The translations under genes were made by a program, and so were the position numbers. The notes under the pieces are model-generated. The model ran no database searches. It was not told where the DNA came from and saw only the letters and a program-made list of their open reading frames with translations. DNA of 45,990 nucleotides, taken from NCBI GenBank assembly GCA_017476605.1, contig JAFUZM010000036.1, positions 1 to 45,990 of the forward strand. The letters are read 5' to 3'. The stretch comes from Clostridia bacterium (GTDB lineage Bacteria; Bacillota; Clostridia; Christensenellales; Aristaeellaceae). Below are positions 1,065 through 45,904 of this stretch, in pieces; the first letter of the stretch is position 1; each line of letters starts with the position of its first letter.

Positions 1065-1949
1065 ATGCTTGGTGTCATGCTTGTTCGCAAGGAAGAGCTG
1101 AAGTTCCGGGAATTTGATCGATACCGGGCATATTACTGTGGACTTTGTCGCACACTCGGCAAGCGAACGGGCATTGCCAGCCGGATGGCACTCAGCTTTG
1201 AGATGACTTTCCTGGGTCTTCTTCTGACATCACTGTATGAACCCGAAACGAGAGAGGAACACCATCGGTGTCCGGTGCATCCGGCCAAACGGCGGCAGAT
1301 GCTGCAGAACAGCGTACTTGAGTACTGCGCAGATCTGTCTGCCCTGACGGCGTATTATGATCTTCTGGATGGATGGCAGGATGAGCATCGGGTGGATCAG
1401 CTGGCTGCCAGTGGTGTGATCCAAAAGGCAGCAAAAGAAAGCGGAGCCCGCTGGCCGAGACAGAAAGAGGCCGTGGAGCGGTATGTCAATGAGCTGCATA
1501 AAGTGGAGGCCTCCGGGGACGATCTCCTCGATACGGCTGCCAATCTGACCGGGGAGATGCTGGCGGAGCTCTATGTCATGGAGGAGGACTTCTACAGTCC
1601 GGACCTTCGAACCCTCGGCTTTGGAATCGGGAAATTCATTTATCTCTCGGACAGCTATGAGGATATCGAGAAGGATATCAAGCATGGCAATTATAATCCG
1701 CTGATTTCAAGATGGAAGCAGCCGGGATTTGATGAACATATAAAGGAAGTTTTAGACAGCATTATGGCTGAGACTGCGGCGGCCTTTGAGCGGCTGCCTC
1801 TTCTCCTTGACGCGGAGATTATGCGCAACATTCTGTACTCCGGAATGTGGCAGCGCTTTGAGGCAACCTGGCAGCGTCGGCAGGAAAAGGAAAAGCGTGC
1901 GAGGGAAAAGAGCGAAAGCAGCGAAACCTCTGCCACTTCTCCTGATTGA
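1065..1949 (+). CDS. DUF5685 family protein
   Basis: 294 residues. The N-terminus, KEELKFREFDRYRAYYCGLC, carries the Tyr-Tyr-Cys-Gly-Leu-Cys signature I associate with DUF5685 proteins of Clostridia. A second conserved-looking stretch, GFGIGKFIYLSDSYEDIEKD, lies in the C-terminal half. The middle is mostly helical, with no signal peptide or membrane segment. The Cys pair may bind metal, but that is inference. I chose the ATG at 1065 because it matches the family N-terminus, has a GAGAGG Shine-Dalgarno upstream and lies after the promoter. The frame is open back to an ATG at 927, which would precede the predicted transcription start. The DnaJ gene begins 30 nt after its stop, so the two are probably one operon. 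The biochemical function is unknown. Confidence 0.8.
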   Translation: MLGVMLVRKEELKFREFDRYRAYYCGLCRTLGKRTGIASRMALSFEMTFLGLLLTSLYEPETREEHHRCPVHPAKRRQMLQNSVLEYCADLSALTAYYDLLDGWQDEHRVDQLAASGVIQKAAKESGARWPRQKEAVERYVNELHKVEASGDDLLDTAANLTGEMLAELYVMEEDFYSPDLRTLGFGIGKFIYLSDSYEDIEKDIKHGNYNPLISRWKQPGFDEHIKEVLDSIMAETAAAFERLPLLLDAEIMRNILYSGMWQRFEATWQRRQEKEKRAREKSESSETSATSPD

Positions 1950-1979
1950 GGAAGGTAACCCACCAGAGAGGAATGGAAC

Positions 1980-2714
1980 ATGATGGATCCATATCAGGTA
2001 CTAGGTGTATCGCGGACGGCAAGCGATGATGAAATCAAAAAGGTGTACCGTCAGCTGTGCAAACAGTATCATCCGGATGCCAATGTCGGACGTCCGGACA
2101 TCGAACAGAGGCAAAAGCGATTCCTCGAGATTCAGCAGGCGTATGAGGAAATCATGCATCAGCGTCAGGGCGGCGGAGCCCGCCCGGGATCCGGGTATAA
2201 CGGGGCAGCGCAGCAGCAACAGCAGCAGCAGTCGCCCTATGGGGATCCCTTTGAGGAGTTTTTCAGACAGTATGGTGGCACATATGGGTCAAGTGGCCGG
2301 TATGCCTATGGCAACACCTATCAGCAGAGCAGCTCACCGGAGATGCAGGCCGCCAAGAATTATATCGATGCAGGTCACTATGCGGAGGCACTTAATGCAC
2401 TTGGCATGGTTCCGCCCAGAGAGCGGAATGCACGCTGGTATTTCCTGAGCGCCATGGCGCAGAGCGGTCTGCACAACCAGGGACAGGCCATTGAGTATGC
2501 CCGTCAGGCCGTCAGCATGGAGCCCAGCAACCCGATGTATCAGGACCTTTTGTCGAACCTGCAAAGCGGAGGACGCGGGTATGCCCAGTACGGACAGCAG
2601 TACGGGCGTCATAATATGGGAAATATGGCCAATCCGTGCACGTCGCTTTGCGCAATCTATATGTGCTCGACGTGCCTGTGTGGCGGTCGCATGCCGTTGT
2701 TCTGCTGTATTTGA
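1980..2714 (+). CDS. DnaJ (J-domain) protein with cysteine-rich tail
   Basis: 244 residues. Residues 3-62 form a J domain: [20 protein letters not shown] followed by the HPD tripeptide in YHPD, the motif that stimulates the ATPase of DnaK-type Hsp70s. A Gln/Gly/Tyr-rich linker with a run of glutamines follows (about 63-125). Next comes a helical segment reminiscent of a TPR (about 125-185, with [14 protein letters not shown] and a second helix pair). The last 30 residues are very cysteine-rich (CTSLC, CSTCLC, FCC). It lacks the zinc domain and C-terminal domains of true DnaJ, so it is an accessory J protein. The start is supported by an AGAGAGGA Shine-Dalgarno. It follows the DUF5685 gene closely, which suggests a joint function. 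The Cys tail could bind metal or be lipidated; that is speculation. Confidence 0.85.
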
Positions 2715-2786
2715 CATAAATACCGGAAAGATTCAAGCATTTTTTAGGCACGTTTATCACATTTTTCACGGATGAGGAAAAAAAGA

Positions 2787-2815
2787 TTGCATAATAAAGG
2801 GATTTGGGATACAAT
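2787..2815 (+). promoter_or_regulatory. Sigma-A promoter for the trmH operon
   Basis: TTGCAT (2787-2792), 17-nt spacer, TACAAT (2810-2815). It lies about 55 nt upstream of the methyltransferase start and would drive the three-gene set 2870-5139. Confidence 0.7.
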
Positions 2816-2869
2816 GCAGTCGATTTTTGAGGCAGGCGGCAGTTGCCTCTGAAGGGAGAGGTGCAGGCG

Positions 2870-3655
2870 ATGATCCGGATTGAAAGCATTCATAATCCGC
2901 AGATTCAGTCCCTGCGAAAACTTTCAAAGGCAAAAGCACGCAGAGAGTCCGGCACCTTTCTGGTGGAAGGTCCCCGGATGGTGGAGGAGGCACTGGCACT
3001 TCATCTGCCAAGGATGCTTCTTGTGAGCAGGACGGGCCTGTTCGCTGACTTGGTGCACGCCGCTGAGGCGGACGGGCTGCAGGTGATTGAGGTCAGCGGG
3101 AGTGTCATGGATGCATTGTCGGAGAGCAAAACGCCTCAGGGTGTTATGGCGCTCTGCCCGATGAAGGAAGAAACAAGAGGGCCGGCAGGTCCTCTGATTC
3201 TTGCGCTTGACGGAGTCCAGAATCCGGGCAACGTGGGCACGATGATCAGGACGGCAGAAGCCGCGGGAATAACGTGCGTCCTCCTTGGCGTGGGATGTGC
3301 GGATCTCTATTCGGCCAAGACCCTGGCTGCGACCATGGGGTCTGTGTTCCGCCTTGACATCCTTCAGGTCCCGGATCTCAAAGAGACGCTTAGGATGCTT
3401 TCAAAGGATGGATACAACATTTTATCCGGAGTGCTGGATGGGATGGACTTTTACGAGGCCTGTCCCCCGGGAAAGTCGGTCCTTGTGATCGGCAATGAGG
3501 GAAACGGCATTTCGGAGGAGATTAAAGACGTATCAACACACTGCCTGACCCTTCCGATGTGGGGGCGGGCAGAAAGCCTCAATGCCTCTGTTGCAGCAGG
3601 CATTATGATTTATGAACTGGCCAGACGAAATCATCTGGCAGAGGGTTCAAATTGA
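2870..3655 (+). CDS. TrmH/SpoU family RNA 2'-O-ribose methyltransferase
   Basis: 261 residues. The N-terminal part (NPQIQSLRKLSKAKARRESG, then FLVEGPRMVEEAL) is the substrate-binding SpoU_sub_bind domain of about 70 residues found in 23S rRNA methyltransferases. The SPOUT catalytic domain follows, with LDGVQNPGNVGTMIRTAEAAG (motif 1, Asn and Arg conserved), VIGNEGNGIS (motif 2) and LPMWGRAESLNASVAAGIM (motif 3). These motifs form the trefoil knot that binds S-adenosylmethionine. It probably methylates a ribose in rRNA or tRNA; the exact position cannot be told from sequence. The ATG at 2870 was chosen over the upstream start at 2843 because it has GGGAGAGG 8 nt before it and starts at the family N-terminus. 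First gene of a probable operon. Confidence 0.88.
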   Translation: MIRIESIHNPQIQSLRKLSKAKARRESGTFLVEGPRMVEEALALHLPRMLLVSRTGLFADLVHAAEADGLQVIEVSGSVMDALSESKTPQGVMALCPMKEETRGPAGPLILALDGVQNPGNVGTMIRTAEAAGITCVLLGVGCADLYSAKTLAATMGSVFRLDILQVPDLKETLRMLSKDGYNILSGVLDGMDFYEACPPGKSVLVIGNEGNGISEEIKDVSTHCLTLPMWGRAESLNASVAAGIMIYELARRNHLAEGSN

Positions 3656-41276: not shown

Positions 41277-42590
41277 TTATATTGACTGTTCCAAAACAGG
41301 GAGGGAAAGGTCCGATTCCTGAATCAGACCGTCTTCAAGCATTTTCTGGACGCTCATAAGAACACCGAGCTTTGAGTGACACCAGGTAAGACCGCCCTGA
41401 AAATAGACCGCATACGGAGGACGGATGGGGCCATCTGCCGAGAGCTCAATGGAGGAGCCCTGAACAAATGCACCTGCAGCCATGATGACCTGGCTGTCAT
41501 ATCCGGGCATGTCCCAGGGGATTGGCGTAACGTAGGAATCCACGGGTGCAGCGGCCTGAATGCCGCGGCAGAAGGCAACCATGGCTTTCTCGCTGCCCAG
41601 TTCAATGGCCTGGATGATATCATGACGGGTTTCCTTTGATCCTGGAATGACCCGATAGCCAAGATGCTCATAAATGGCCGAGGCAAAGATGGCGCCTTTC
41701 ATCGCGGAAGCGGTTACGGTCGGGGCAAGGAAGAAGCCTTGATAAAGCTGAGTCATGAGGCCAAGGTTTGCGCCTACTTCCTGGCCAAGACCGGGAGCGG
41801 AGAGGCGGTAGGCACATCGATCAATGCAGGTTTGTGTACCACAGATGTAACCACCGATAGGGGCAAGCCCGCCGCCGGGATTCTTGATCAGGGAACCGAC
41901 AATCATATCCGCGCCAAGGTCAGACGGCTCAATGCATTCAGTGAATTCGCCATAGCAGTTATCAACCATGCAGATGAGATCCGGCTTGATTTCCTTCATG
42001 AAGCGAATCAGCTCACCGATCTGTGCGACGGAAAGCGTGGGACGTGTGGCATATCCCTTGGAACGCTGTATCGTGGCCAGCTTTGTCTTCGGGTGGATGG
42101 CATTGCGGATGCTTTCATAATCAATGGAACCGTCCGGAAGCAGAGGGGTTTCGGAATAGGTAACACCGTATTCGGCAAGAGAGCAGGCGGAGGGCCGGAT
42201 GCCGATGACCTCCTCAAGGGTATCATAGGGGCGGCCTACCGGGGAATACAGTTCATCTCCGGGGAGCAGATTGGCAGAAAGAGCGACAGCCAGAGCATGC
42301 GTTCCGCAGGTGATCTGGGGACGAACCAAAGCGGCTTCGGTATGGAATGTGTCGGCATATACCTTCTCCAGCGTGTCGCGACCGACATCGTTATAGCCAT
42401 ATCCGCTGGTTGCAGCAAAGCATGCGGCATTCACCCGGTTTTTCTGCATAGCAGAGATGACCTTTGCCTGATTGTATTCGGCTGTCTGGTCAATGTCCTC
42501 AAACTGGGGACGAAGGGAAAGAAGAATCTGTTCCCCCATCTGATAGACGGAATCCGAAATCCCGATTTCCGCATATACGTTATTCTTCAT
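41277..42590 (-). CDS. Methionine gamma-lyase family (COG4100) PLP enzyme
   Basis: 437 residues. This fold-type I PLP protein family is often annotated as aluminium resistance or methionine gamma-lyase family protein. The PLP lysine is Lys236 in VGSLIKNPGGGLAPIGGYI. CMVDNCYGEF contains the Asp that holds the pyridine nitrogen, and RPQITCGTHALAVAL the phosphate-cup region. A C-S lyase reaction on sulphur amino acids is likely but not proven. The ATG at 42590 follows AAAGGATGATCTCA; an earlier in-frame ATG overlaps that site. The start lies inside the end of the AbrB gene, so the regulator, enzyme and DMT transporter form one operon. Confidence 0.88.
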   Translation of the reverse strand: MKNNVYAEIGISDSVYQMGEQILLSLRPQFEDIDQTAEYNQAKVISAMQKNRVNAACFAATSGYGYNDVGRDTLEKVYADTFHTEAALVRPQITCGTHALAVALSANLLPGDELYSPVGRPYDTLEEVIGIRPSACSLAEYGVTYSETPLLPDGSIDYESIRNAIHPKTKLATIQRSKGYATRPTLSVAQIGELIRFMKEIKPDLICMVDNCYGEFTECIEPSDLGADMIVGSLIKNPGGGLAPIGGYICGTQTCIDRCAYRLSAPGLGQEVGANLGLMTQLYQGFFLAPTVTASAMKGAIFASAIYEHLGYRVIPGSKETRHDIIQAIELGSEKAMVAFCRGIQAAAPVDSYVTPIPWDMPGYDSQVIMAAGAFVQGSSIELSADGPIRPPYAVYFQGGLTWCHSKLGVLMSVQKMLEDGLIQESDLSLPVLEQSI

Positions 42591-42831
42591 TGAGATCATC
42601 CTTTTCTATCTGATTCATGATGGTTTCAAGTAGTTGACTTAAAACCTCCGGTTTCGTAACGATCATTCCGTTTTCCTCATCTCCCATGACTAGAAGAGTG
42701 TCTCCGGGCTGGATGTGATAAAACGTACGAGCATCCTTGGGAATTACGATTTGTCCCCGATCTCCAACCTTTGCCGTTCCGAAAATGTGACGGTTTTTGG
42801 TCATGCCGAGAACGTGCTTGCCACCGGCCAT
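42580..42831 (-). CDS. AbrB/SpoVT-type transcriptional regulator
   Basis: 83 residues. The N-terminal swapped-hairpin domain reads GTAKVGDRGQIVIPKDARTF followed by YHIQPGDTLLVMGDEENGMI, the usual AbrB/MazE DNA-binding fold. The C-terminal helix (VLSQLLETIMNQIEKDDLNEE) probably dimerises. The ATG at 42831 follows GGAAAGGAACAGACC; the frame is open to 42999 but passes through the promoter. It overlaps the start of the lyase-family gene by 11 nt, so it may control its own operon. A palindromic site at 42881-42903 is a candidate operator. Confidence 0.9.
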   Translation of the reverse strand: MAGGKHVLGMTKNRHIFGTAKVGDRGQIVIPKDARTFYHIQPGDTLLVMGDEENGMIVTKPEVLSQLLETIMNQIEKDDLNEE

Positions 42832-42880
42832 GGTCTGTTCCTTTCCAGATAAAATAAGCAGAGAGGTAAAATCACATTTT

Positions 42881-42903
42881 TCACACATTTCATACTTGTG
42901 TGA
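42881..42903 (-). promoter_or_regulatory. Candidate operator of the AbrB operon
   Basis: Perfect inverted repeat TCACACA-N9-TGTGTGA, just downstream of the predicted transcription start. A repressor bound here would block the operon. Self-control by the AbrB-type protein is an inference. Confidence 0.5.
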
Positions 42904-42913
42904 CGTGGACGAT

Positions 42914-42942
42914 AGTATAGCGGCCTTAATGGGAATTGTCAA
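42914..42942 (-). promoter_or_regulatory. Sigma-A promoter of the AbrB-lyase-transporter operon
   Basis: On the minus strand TTGACA (42942-42937), exact 17-nt spacer, TATACT (42919-42914). Confidence 0.88.
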
Positions 42943-43217
42943 TCTGTTTTTGCTGAAGCAAAAAAGAAAACAGGCTGAACCTGGGCCGGAATATTTCATC
43001 TTGCAGACAAAGGTGTGGAAAGGGGTGAATCTGATGTCCTTTGGCGATCCTTTTCAAAACCATGAGAAATAACGGACGGATACGCTTGGCCTGGCAAACG
43101 GATCTTTGTCTGCAGATGATTGAGGAAAGGTTCAAACTGGCAAAAAACGATTTTAATGTTGGCAGCATACACGGCGCTGTTTCGTTAGAAAATGATTAGG
43201 GATTCAGCTATTCGTAA
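42943..43217. other. Intergenic region, no supported gene
   Basis: The only open frame of note on the plus strand is 45 codons (43062-43199) with no Shine-Dalgarno, so I do not call it. No terminator or repeat is apparent. Confidence 0.5.
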
Positions 43218-43282: not shown

Positions 43283-44209
43283 ATGGCATCTGACAATGTT
43301 CAATATAAGGACAGACTGTTCAACTTTATTTTTGGTTCAGAGGAAAACAAGGCGTGGACATTGAGCTTGTACAATGCTGTCAATGGTTCTGCATATAGCG
43401 ATCCGAATGCAATTCAGATTACAACAATCAAAGAAATCATGTACCTCGGAATGCACAATGACGTCTCTTTCCTGATTGCTGAAGAGATGGCTCTGTATGA
43501 ACAGCAGTCCACGTACAATCCGAATATGCCGCTGCGGATGCTTCAATATGCAGGGAATCTATACGAAAAATATGTCAAGGAGAACAAGCTGAACAAGTAT
43601 GGCAGCGACATATTACTGTTGCCAGTACCAAAGCTGGTTGTATTTTATAACGGAACAGAGAATCAGCCGAACAGGAAAATCCTTAGACTGAGCGAATCTT
43701 TTCCAAAGGGTGCGGATGCAGATATAGAGGTCAAAGTTCGCATGCTCAATATCAACGCCGGGAAGAACAAAAAACTGCTTAATGCGTGCAAACCTCTTGG
43801 AGAATACTCATGGTTGGTAAAGGAAGTGCGAAAAAACAATACAACAAAAGATGAAAGCGGTATGAGCAGTGCAATTGACAAAGCAATTACTGCGATGCCG
43901 GATGATTATTTGATCAAACCATTTCTTGTAGTACATCGAGCGGAGGTGAAAGGAATGTTACTTACAGAGTATAATGAAGCTGAACAAATGGAGCTATTCA
44001 AAGAGGATGGCAGGAGAGAGGGCCGAGCCGAGGGCCGAGCCGAGGGTTTAGCAGAAGGTCGAGTAAAGGGCCGGACCGAGGGCTTAGCAGAAGGAACGAT
44101 GAAAACACTGACTGCTCTTGTCAGGGAGGGACTTCTTTCTATAAGGGATGCAGCAAATCATGCTGGCCTTACCGAGAAAGCATTTGAACAGCAAATGGCA
44201 GCAGTATAG
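43283..44209 (+). CDS. Rpn family recombination-promoting nuclease (RpnL, toxin)
   Basis: 308 residues. The PD-(D/E)XK-type nuclease part spans about 1-220: YKDRLFNFIFGSEENKAWTL at the start, Asp60 in MHNDVSFLI, Glu73 and Gln75 in LYEQQSTYNPNMPLRMLQYA (the D...ExQ signature of the family). The C-terminal part contains charged 4-residue repeats (GRAE, GLAE, GRVK, GRTE) and then a conserved tail ending QMAAV. Rpn proteins cleave DNA, are toxic, act against phage in E. coli, and are inhibited by their own C-terminal fragment made from an internal start. GGTGGAG lies 6 nt before the ATG at 43283. It is the first of a tandem set with two extra copies of its 3' end. Confidence 0.88.
   Translation: MASDNVQYKDRLFNFIFGSEENKAWTLSLYNAVNGSAYSDPNAIQITTIKEIMYLGMHNDVSFLIAEEMALYEQQSTYNPNMPLRMLQYAGNLYEKYVKENKLNKYGSDILLLPVPKLVVFYNGTENQPNRKILRLSESFPKGADADIEVKVRMLNINAGKNKKLLNACKPLGEYSWLVKEVRKNNTTKDESGMSSAIDKAITAMPDDYLIKPFLVVHRAEVKGMLLTEYNEAEQMELFKEDGRREGRAEGRAEGLAEGRVKGRTEGLAEGTMKTLTALVREGLLSIRDAANHAGLTEKAFEQQMAAV
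43955..44209 (+). CDS. Intragenic antitoxin-like RpnS, in frame within the rpn gene
   Basis: 84 residues, identical to the last part of RpnL. The internal ATG at codon 225 is preceded by GGAGGTG (43942-43948) with 6 nt spacing, one of the strongest Shine-Dalgarno sites in the window although inside a gene. The separately encoded copies at 44244 and 44473 begin at exactly the same residue (MLLTEYNEAEQMELFKEDG), which independently marks this as a real start. In the studied Rpn systems the short product binds and blocks the full-length nuclease. That role here is inferred. Confidence 0.75.
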   Translation: MLLTEYNEAEQMELFKEDGRREGRAEGRAEGLAEGRVKGRTEGLAEGTMKTLTALVREGLLSIRDAANHAGLTEKAFEQQMAAV

Positions 44210-44243
44210 AAATCTTCAGTAGATACAAATTGGAGGAAATGAA

Positions 44244-44438
44244 ATGCTGCTTACAGAGTATAATGAAGCAGAACAAATGGAGCTATTCAAAGAGGATGGC
44301 AGGAGAGAGGGCTTGGCAGAAGGAACGATGAAAACACTGATTGCTCTTGTCAAGGAGGGACTTCTTTCTATAAGGGATGCAGCGAATCATGCCGGCCTTA
44401 CAGAGAAAGCATTTGAACAGCAGATGGCAGCAGTATAG
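44244..44438 (+). CDS. Free-standing RpnS-like protein, short form
   Basis: 64 residues: MLLTEYNEAEQMELFKEDGR, then REGLAEG, then the tail MKTLIALVKEGLLSIRDAAN...QQMAAV. Compared with the rpn end, it lacks five of the 4-residue repeats. It has its own GGAGG 7 nt before the ATG. As an antitoxin homologue without a nuclease domain it could inhibit RpnL, or form mixed dimers if repeat length sets partner choice. A dead duplicate is the alternative, but the intact frame and ribosome binding site speak against it. Confidence 0.8.
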   Translation: MLLTEYNEAEQMELFKEDGRREGLAEGTMKTLIALVKEGLLSIRDAANHAGLTEKAFEQQMAAV

Positions 44439-44472
44439 AAATCTTCAGTAGATACAAATTGGAGGAAATGAA

Positions 44473-44799
44473 ATGCTGCTTACAGAGTATAATGAAGCTG
44501 AACAAATGGAGCTATTCAAAGAGGATGGCAGGAGAGAGGGCCGAACTGAGGGCCGAGCCGAGGGCTTAGCAGAAGGTCGAATAAAAGGCCGAGCCGAGGG
44601 CTTAGCAGAAGGTCGAGTAAAGGGCCGAGCGGAGGGCTTAGCAGAAGGTCGAGTAAAAGGCCGAGCGGAGGGCTTAGCAGAAGGAAGGATGAAAACACTG
44701 ACTGCTCTTGTCAAGGAGGGACTTCTTTCTATAAGGAATGCAGCGAATCATGCCGGCCTTACAGAGGCAGAGTTTGAACAGCACATGGCGATCGTTTAA
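44473..44799 (+). CDS. Free-standing RpnS-like protein, long form
   Basis: 108 residues. Same first 22 residues as the other copies, then a long array of GRAE/GLAE/GRVK-type units (about 13 four-residue units), and a tail that has diverged at the end (GLTEAEFEQHMAIV in place of GLTEKAFEQQMAAV). The array should be one long charged helix. Same GGAGG and spacing as the middle copy. It is the longest of the three antitoxin-like products, so the locus holds short, medium and long versions. Confidence 0.8.
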   Translation: MLLTEYNEAEQMELFKEDGRREGRTEGRAEGLAEGRIKGRAEGLAEGRVKGRAEGLAEGRVKGRAEGLAEGRMKTLTALVKEGLLSIRNAANHAGLTEAEFEQHMAIV

Positions 44800-44963
44800 A
44801 ACGAACGGGAAGACATAGGGACAGGGAAGATACTGGCTAACACGGTAAGCTCGAACTTTCTTGTTGGGGTGTTGCCTATCTTTTATAGGAATTATGGCTT
44901 TTCGCACTGGTCAGGAACAGCAGATGAGAGTTTTGGATGTACTTGGCTTTGGGAGGTTTATGC

Positions 44964-45266
44964 ATGGGACTGTTTACACCGATATGGATGAGGAAAAATG
45001 CAGATCCAATCAAAGCAGCGGCTGCTGTACGACGGATAGATCGGCAGGAAAAGCTGAAGGAAATAGCAATCAATGCGTTTTCGGAAAGTGCAAAAGTGGA
45101 GGCTGTATCCAAAATTGAAGACGAGCAGTTTCTCCTTTCCTATGTCCTTGATGCATCTCAGTCCCGCGGAGCCTCAAGGCAGGCAGCGGCAGATCATATA
45201 TCCTCTAAAGACAGGCTTATTGCGCTTCTTTGTCATGACTTCGGGAACGATCATCTCGTGCCTTGA
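44964..45266 (+). CDS. HEAT-like repeat protein, first part
   Basis: 100 residues. MGLFTPIWMRKNADPIKAAA begins the protein. Helical repeats follow (KLKEIAINAFSESAKVEAVS, FLLSYVLDASQSRGASRQAA, RLIALLCHD), about 30 residues each, in the style of bacterial HEAT-type proteins. GGGAGG 7 nt before ATG 44964 supports the start. The stop TGA at 45264 interrupts the repeat pattern, which continues in the -1 frame from 45263. It is probably the 5' half of a frameshifted gene. No catalytic motif. The upstream gap 44800-44963 shows no clear promoter, so it may be read with the Rpn cluster. Confidence 0.65.
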   Translation: MGLFTPIWMRKNADPIKAAAAVRRIDRQEKLKEIAINAFSESAKVEAVSKIEDEQFLLSYVLDASQSRGASRQAAADHISSKDRLIALLCHDFGNDHLVP

Positions 45267-45904
45267 TCGCACTCAAAACGGCAAATAGAGTATCAGAGAG
45301 AGATGTGCTCCTGGGTGCTCTGCGTTCGCCCAATGAAGCGATTGTGCAGATTGCGCTTGAAAAGCTGGACGAGCAGGAACTGTATGAGAAAACAGCCTGC
45401 AGTGAACACGGTCAGATGGCAGAATGGGCGCTTGCAAAGATTGGCGACAGCGAGCGGAAAAAGGAACTGCTGCTCAAAATGAAGAGCGATTACGCTTTTT
45501 CAAACGGCCTGAAGCAGCTGATTGAAGAGGGATGGACACCGGATGAGAAAATGCAGGGCATATTGCTTGCCAAAGCCGGAGAAGCCGGATTCGAGAAGTG
45601 GAGTCTTCCCTATGTTGTCCAATTGTTGACGAGTGAACAGGTACTGGCAGACGTTGCGCGTACCAGTTCAAACCGGAAAGCACGCCATGCAGCGATCCAA
45701 TCCATTTCAGATGATGCCGTTTTGGCTGAAATTGCGATGAATGAATGCGAGGATATCTTAAACCGGGAACTGGCGTTTGGCAGGCTCAAAAATCAGGAAC
45801 TGGTTGATAAGAAAACGACGGAGTATATCCGGAGTGTTGATTCCGCCTATTGGTCGGAGGCAGAGAAACGAATGGCGGACATCATGTCAAAAGACTCGTA
45901 CTGA
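45263..45904 (+). CDS. HEAT-like repeat protein, second part
   Basis: 213 residues if started at the TTG that overlaps the previous stop (TTGA). The repeats continue without a break in spacing: DVLLGALRSPNEAIVQIALE, ELYEKTACSEHGQMAEWALA, QVLADVARTSSNRKARHAAI and so on. There is no Shine-Dalgarno suited to the TTG, so the two parts were either one gene that lost one base, or they are joined by -1 slippage or termination-reinitiation. Such proteins bind other proteins as scaffolds. Function unknown. Confidence 0.65.
   Translation: MIALKTANRVSERDVLLGALRSPNEAIVQIALEKLDEQELYEKTACSEHGQMAEWALAKIGDSERKKELLLKMKSDYAFSNGLKQLIEEGWTPDEKMQGILLAKAGEAGFEKWSLPYVVQLLTSEQVLADVARTSSNRKARHAAIQSISDDAVLAEIAMNECEDILNRELAFGRLKNQELVDKKTTEYIRSVDSAYWSEAEKRMADIMSKDSY

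What the first reader, a model, noticed from the sequence alone, without database searches (positions are those of the whole stretch)
43283..44799. One Rpn nuclease toxin followed by two tandem, independently translated copies of its own antitoxin segment
Established for Rpn proteins: the C-terminal fragment RpnS, made from an internal start, blocks the toxic full-length RpnL, and the set acts against phage. In this locus the 3' segment of rpn has been duplicated twice as separate genes (44244-44438 and 44473-44799), each starting at the same Met as the internal start and each with its own GGAGG. One toxin would thus be controlled by three antitoxin-like proteins of 64, 84 and 108 residues. 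I do not know of a described Rpn locus with an array of free-standing antitoxin copies. Possible roles are dosage safety, graded inhibition by mixed dimers, or a reservoir of repeat lengths that recombine into the toxin gene.
Basis: partly seen in the sequence, partly recalled or inferred. Interest (0 to 1): 0.88.

Follow-up and report, generated by a model that had tools for sequence, protein, structure and literature searches.

The report
Nuclease toxin with mismatched antitoxin copies
A bacterium related to gut species carries a toxin-like nuclease gene followed by two free copies of its own tail, the part that in related systems acts as the antidote, but the copies have different repeat lengths from the toxin and so look more like stored alternative or former tails than like extra doses of the same antidote.

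Summary
An Rpn-like gene (43283-44209) has a strong internal start at 43955; two intact tail copies follow (44244-44438, 44473-44799), each with its own GGAGG. Across 83 toxin genes read (window included) the internal start shows nucleotide-level selection. Copies have pooled dN/dS 0.24 (17 pairs), so they are not simply decaying.

Not new in kind: Zhong et al. 2023 already report separate downstream rpnS genes in E. coli (ypaA after rpnE, one after rpnC). New here are a tandem array and a length mismatch. Four-residue repeat counts are 6 (toxin), 1 and 12 (copies). In 16 of 17 comparable family pairs, and 13 of 13 E. coli rpnE/ypaA loci read (9 distinct pairs), copy and toxin differ in repeat number. 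Since one extra repeat abolished RpnC antitoxin action (Zhong), "three antidotes for one toxin" is unlikely.

I favour alternative or former tails, like CDI/Rhs orphan modules: the E. coli rpnE nuclease occurs with either tail body, and one relative (L024) has a foreign tail with the old type downstream. A second Rpn-like subfamily has arrays of 2-4 copies in 4 of 20 loci. Function is inferred; nothing was tested experimentally.

The parts
43283..44209 (+). Rpn-like nuclease gene (RpnL-like, 308 aa; possible GTG start 43271); putative catalytic D60, E73, Q75
   Evidence: (D60, E73, Q75 invariant in 56 of 56)
43942..43946 (+). GGAGG before the internal start, embedded in codons Ala-Glu-Val
   Evidence: Glu codon GAG in 82 of 82 Glu at this site vs 716 of 1379 elsewhere in the same genes
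43955..44209 (+). in-gene RpnS-like tail, 84 aa, internal ATG start
44024..44095 (+). six four-residue repeats of the toxin tail
44210..44243 (+). 34-nt leader with GGAGG (44232-44236)
   Evidence: identical to the second leader
44244..44438 (+). free-standing tail copy S1, 64 aa, one repeat (44313-44324)
   Evidence: dN/dS 0.06 against toxin tail
44439..44472 (+). second copy of the leader with GGAGG (44461-44465)
44473..44799 (+). free-standing tail copy S2, 108 aa, twelve repeats (44542-44685), different C-terminal end
   Evidence: dN/dS 0.20

Best explanation
The locus is a diverged Rpn-like nuclease toxin with an in-gene antitoxin start, followed by two free-standing tail genes of different specificity. 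Tails can be exchanged, joined to the nuclease at the conserved internal-start segment. When a new or lengthened tail takes the place next to the nuclease, older tails stay downstream, keep a start and go on being made as RpnS-like proteins. They can be recombined back into the nuclease through the near-identical heads, changing toxin and built-in antitoxin together in one step. Shown from sequence: intact copies, SDs, constraint, length mismatch, tail exchange in L024, two alternative tails on the E. coli rpnE nuclease. Inferred: that the copies are translated here, do not neutralise the adjacent toxin, and are kept as former or alternative tails.
For: Mismatch in repeat number: 16 of 17 comparable family pairs and 13 of 13 E. 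coli rpnE/ypaA loci read, 9 distinct pairs. RpnC length rule (PMC10327210). E. coli: ypaA-type body in 5363 of 5426 genomes, rpnE-type body in 3101; in 6 of 6 intact single-tail forms read the nuclease carries a ypaA-like body, clear in five, with a divergent end in the sixth, L135. L024 groups with L023 and the window on the nuclease tree (support 97) but has a type B tail, with a type A copy downstream that matches L023's tail at 156 of 210 nt columns. 14 changes of tail type are needed on the tree, 6 being the least possible for 7 types. S1's two closest toxin tails, L023 and L019, have its length, 64 aa, as do five of the seven closest. Copies constrained: pooled dN/dS 0.24 over 17 pairs.
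Against: The length rule was shown for RpnC only, with one added repeat. The E. coli mismatch is no more than independence would give (shuffle mean 1.3 matches, P(0)=0.23): absence of matching, not selection for mismatch. L048's second copy matches its toxin in length, and so does one of the three C383 copies (counted by eye). Tail types mostly follow the nuclease lineage: 14 changes against 27-36 in 200 shuffles, so exchange is occasional. For the window itself, repeat expansion after a plain tandem duplication would give the same picture without exchange. A metagenome assembly through tandem repeats may have the wrong repeat count.
Confidence: 0.46

Rival explanations
1. Extra cognate antitoxins: all three short proteins bind and restrain the same nuclease (dosage safety or graded inhibition), the length rule of RpnC not holding here.
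For: Heads and bodies nearly identical to the toxin tail; the YpaA protein is detected in E. coli (PMC10327210); constraint on copies; L048's second copy matches in length.
Against: 29 of 30 copy-toxin pairs compared (17 family, 13 E. coli) differ in repeat number, and one added repeat abolished RpnC inhibition.
Confidence: 0.23
2. Immunity against other Rpn toxins: the copies neutralise incoming or neighbouring alleles with other repeat lengths (anti-addiction).
For: S1 has the length (64 aa) and 75% identity of the tail of L023, a toxin in another genome; 500-nt flanks of the gene are unrelated in the comparisons made, L024 with L023 and L023 with the window, as for a gene that moves alone.
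Against: For S2 no close toxin was found: best by full length L086, 56%, 104 aa, with another head. No test of action in trans.
Confidence: 0.16
3. By-product: tandem duplication and slippage at repeats leave tail copies that are tolerated but do little.
For: Repeat-rich, duplication-prone DNA; one truncated copy (L065, 15 aa); copies in only 15 of 71 toxin loci with at least 600 nt downstream.
Against: Pooled dN/dS 0.24 and intact frames; an SD before many copies (absent or weak in L048, L043 and L017).
Confidence: 0.12
4. Assembly artefact of a metagenome-like bin through tandem repeats.
For: G000 is a 409-contig assembly with 7.6% contamination; the window, a whole contig, ends 1.2 kb after the array.
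Against: The same arrangement recurs in other assemblies and in complete E. coli genomes.
Confidence: 0.03

Closest known systems
E. coli rpnE-ypaA (rpnE_S) and rpnC with downstream rpnC_S (Zhong et al. 2023, PMC10327210)
   Same: Rpn nuclease with internal start, followed by a separately translated copy of its C-terminal antitoxin; four-residue repeats vary
   Different: One downstream copy there, two here (up to four in a related subfamily). I saw no mention of the rpnE/ypaA length mismatch in the main text or legends; I read it from the genomes. The supplement was not seen
CDI/Rhs orphan toxin-immunity modules (PMC4927057, passages read)
   Same: Displaced 3' ends of a toxin gene kept downstream, often in tandem, able to recombine back; fossil or reserve models
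   Different: Toxins delivered to neighbours, with separate immunity genes; here the C-terminal tail is itself the antitoxin and the toxin is taken to act inside its own cell
RpnA/RpnB/RpnE nucleases of E. coli
   Same: E-x-Q motif block and a variable C-terminal tail with an internal start
   Different: Remote homology only: hhalign probability 84.8%, E 6.6e-6 over 66 columns

Membership tests
Rpn nuclease family (RpnL/RpnS) | homology to the Rpn nuclease domain | tested here: met
   hhalign against RpnA/B/E 84.8%, E 6.6e-6; PF04754 matched by 12 of 56 members at E<=0.01, best 4.5e-5; TIGR01784 by 32 of 56 at E<=0.001, for the window protein mainly over the tail. Yae1_N and FliH models match as many or nearly as many members (12 and up to 21 of 56), over the repeats
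Rpn nuclease family (RpnL/RpnS) | score above curated family cut-off (a database convention, not a biological trait) | tested here: not met
   window protein: TIGR01784 25.7 vs 52.1 bits, PF04754 14.7 vs 21, PF12784 13.2 vs 27.4; hence called Rpn-like
Rpn nuclease family (RpnL/RpnS) | PD-(D/E)XK-type active site | tested here: inconclusive
Rpn nuclease family (RpnL/RpnS) | internal translation start for the C-terminal antitoxin | tested here: met
   GGAGG within 16 nt upstream in 78 of 83; GAG 82 of 82 Glu codons vs 716 of 1379; GCG 60 of 63 Ala vs 400 of 1126. Three further intact toxins were missed by the head pattern, and one of them, L078, has Leu instead of Met there. Translation itself not tested
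Rpn nuclease family (RpnL/RpnS) | variable number of four-residue repeats in the tail | tested here: met
Rpn nuclease family (RpnL/RpnS) | toxicity of long form, rescue by short form, phage defence | not testable with these tools
   needs expression in laboratory E. coli
CDI/Rhs orphan arrays | toxin delivered to neighbours, with separate immunity gene | not tested
   analogy only; no secretion partner was looked for

The most novel reading that the evidence does not exclude
Rpn-type loci keep arrays of alternative antitoxin tails, length-typed or sequence-typed, that are translated but do not act on the adjacent toxin; they are former or future specificities. This would be an intracellular toxin-antitoxin counterpart of CDI/Rhs orphan arrays, in which one recombination event re-specifies toxin and antitoxin at once.
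Probability: 0.34. Interest if true: 0.75.

Novelty: new variant of a known kind. Interest (0 to 1): 0.52.

Why it matters
Zhong et al. leave open why Rpn tails vary in repeat number and how downstream small-protein genes arise. The lack of matching found here (29 of 30 pairs compared) turns that into a direct test: one locus holds a toxin, its own tail and two natural tails of 1 and 12 repeats. If the copies are stored tails, a toxin-antitoxin system can switch specificity without passing through a state in which toxin and antitoxin disagree.

Tried and rejected
Other collections: the viral-contig scan found no relative (39 pattern matches, none confirmed); plasmids gave 2 records with partial matches (32% of the query); phage records gave 4, three of them covering 75-78% of the query at 36-38% identity, not followed up. 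Internal promoter and terminators: counts not above shuffles (3 vs 2.8, 2 vs 1.6). Avoidance of matching in E. coli: considered and rejected, shuffles give P(0)=0.23. Free mixing of tails: rejected, tail types mostly follow lineage. Defence genes near by: no PADLOC match for 7 proteins given (the toxin among them), except a Lon protease that resembles BrxL; the other ORFs of the window were not scanned.

Corrections: a first pattern for E. coli heads found nothing and was corrected. In one search one L032 copy was counted among toxins; corrected. In one search the toxin filter missed most loci; redone.

Rows dropped before counts: 88 loci entered the head scan. L060 and L038 repeat L017 and L016. 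L036, L078 and L083 have intact toxins that the pattern missed, L080 a broken toxin frame; L090 gives two toxins; hence 83. From the length comparison: L024 (different tail body), L065 (truncated), the L080 copies (no open toxin upstream); the same from dN/dS. In L017 and at the C-terminal ends of several copies there are further gaps outside the repeat zone that are not multiples of four. From the tree: 2 of 83 rows with under 150 aa of nuclease domain; 13 of 81 rows were not labelled, and some small tail clusters were merged by eye.

Literature: searches listed no paper on arrays of free-standing Rpn antitoxin copies other than PMC10327210. Of that preprint I read the main text and legends, not the supplement, nor any later journal version. 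Of PMC4927057 I saw passages. Other papers were seen only in listings.

Full report
What is there. The window is the whole of contig C125 of a 5.04-Mb, 409-contig assembly. An ORF at 43283-44209 encodes a 308-aa protein; inside it ATG 43955 follows GGAGG. Two ORFs follow at 44244-44438 and 44473-44799. A 229-nt tandem unit with 96% matches links the end of the gene and the copies. Both copies have the same 34-nt leader with GGAGG, which differs from the sequence before the toxin's internal start.

Family. The protein scores below curated cut-offs for Rpn models, but its 56-member alignment matches E. coli RpnA/B/E over the E-x-Q block, and Asp60, Glu73 and Gln75 are invariant in 56 of 56. I therefore call it Rpn-like. 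A scan of genome contigs gave 401 relatives, of which the best 80 were kept; many of their titles name ruminant gut samples. Of 398 genomes of the same phylum, 7, the window's own included, matched at E<=1e-15.

The internal start is under selection as DNA. In 83 toxin genes (window included) the Glu codon that forms the SD is GAG in 82 of 82 Glu cases (one gene has Gly), against 716 of 1379 elsewhere in the same genes; the preceding Ala is GCG in 60 of 63, against 400 of 1126; GGAGG is present in 78 of 83. The genes are related, so the binomial p-values (about 1e-23) overstate independence. Three more intact toxins escaped the pattern; L078 has Leu where the internal Met should be.

Downstream copies recur. 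Of 71 toxins with at least 600 nt of downstream sequence, 15, the window and the truncated L065 included, have at least one tail copy; the window, L048 and L077 have two. In 17 comparable pairs the copy differs from the adjacent toxin's tail in repeat number in 16, in the repeat zone always by a multiple of four residues. The window's counts are 6 in the toxin, 1 in S1, 12 in S2. Pooled dN/dS between copies and toxin tails is 0.24 (188.2 synonymous, 184.8 non-synonymous differences, 17 pairs).

E. coli as a comparison. The region matches in 5371 of 5426 genomes. I read 13 two-tail loci: MG1655 and 12 of the 60 listed hits. Toxin/copy repeat counts are 0/1, 0/1, 5/1, 6/4, 5/2, 4/0, 1/4, 8/4, 8/6, 5/2, 5/0, 5/1, 1/4: none equal, 9 distinct pairs. 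Shuffling gives 1.3 matches on average, so this is independence, not avoidance. Seven further hits were read: six intact single-tail forms carry a ypaA-like body on the nuclease (clear in five, divergent at the end in L135), the seventh has an rpnE-type tail and an IS1 element before the copy. The ypaA-type body is in 5363 of 5426 genomes, the rpnE-type body in 3101. So the same nuclease occurs with either tail. The paper describes such fusion as one way in which the downstream gene is lost.

Tail exchange in the window's family. Tail bodies fall into several types. On the nuclease-domain tree 14 changes of type are needed for 68 labelled of 81 rows and 7 types (quick tree, many weak forks, small clusters merged by eye); 200 shuffles need 27-36. 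Tails thus mostly follow the nuclease, with some switches. The clearest switch is L024: its nuclease groups with L023 and the window (97), its head is 65/72 nt identical to L023, similarity ends after the head, and a copy downstream carries the tail type of L023. In the window, S2 has a C-terminal end unlike the other two, as expected if it is the older, displaced end (inference); S1 has the length of its two closest toxin tails.

Arrays in a second subfamily. The same genome has an Rpn-like gene of another subfamily on C383 (PF04754 E 1.5e-6, above its cut-off) with three tail copies; repeat counts, read by eye, are 3 for the toxin and 5, 3, 9 for the copies. Of 20 loci fetched from the search with that protein (more matches were listed than fetched, and three of the 20 are distant), 4 have copies, numbering 3, 2, 2 and 4; the copies of L142 and L150 are longer and include part of the nuclease domain. 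In the four-copy array (L152, a same-genus genome) the copies and the toxin tail differ mainly in their middle part (pS 0.38, pN 0.31), less at the head (pS 0.08, pN 0.11) and hardly at the C-terminal part compared (pS 0.07, pN 0.00); each has an AGGAG 12 nt or so before the presumed start, a rather long spacing.

Mechanism. Zhong et al. show that RpnS blocks RpnL and that for RpnC the repeat number must agree. With 1 and 12 repeats, S1 and S2 are predicted not to block the 6-repeat toxin. Because each tail carries its own antitoxin, joining the nuclease to another tail changes both partners at once. I therefore favour stored former or alternative tails; whether they also protect against foreign Rpn toxins is open. 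Displacement and reserve models of this kind exist for CDI/Rhs (passages).

Limits.

Noticed in passing
L013 (G000:C383) 418-2329: Rpn-like gene of another subfamily followed by three tail copies with repeat counts 5, 3, 9 against 3 in the toxin (by eye).
   Followed up: partly
L152 (G003:C63) 1465-3525: Rpn-like gene followed by four tandem tail copies, 255-nt period, with divergent middle parts.
   Followed up: partly
G000 and G003 genomes: Matches to the C383-type protein are numerous, copies and fragments included: 22 and 16.
   Followed up: no
L080 4664-5479 against L077: Much the same locus in which the toxin frame is broken shortly before the internal start while three tails stay open.
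   Followed up: partly
window 44937-45904: Two overlapping ORFs (109 and 213 aa) in different frames that may be one frameshifted protein; weak HEAT-repeat match below cut-off.
   Followed up: no
window 42580-42999 (-): AbrB/MazE-type DNA-binding ORF beside a methionine gamma-lyase-type gene; a toxin partner was not looked for.
   Followed up: no
L103-L115 (E. coli ypaA): The records flag 12 of the 13 ypaA copies read as pseudogene or incomplete although the frame is open and the SD intact.
   Followed up: partly
phage records H63-H66: Four phage records from human faecal samples encode a relative of the toxin.
   Followed up: no
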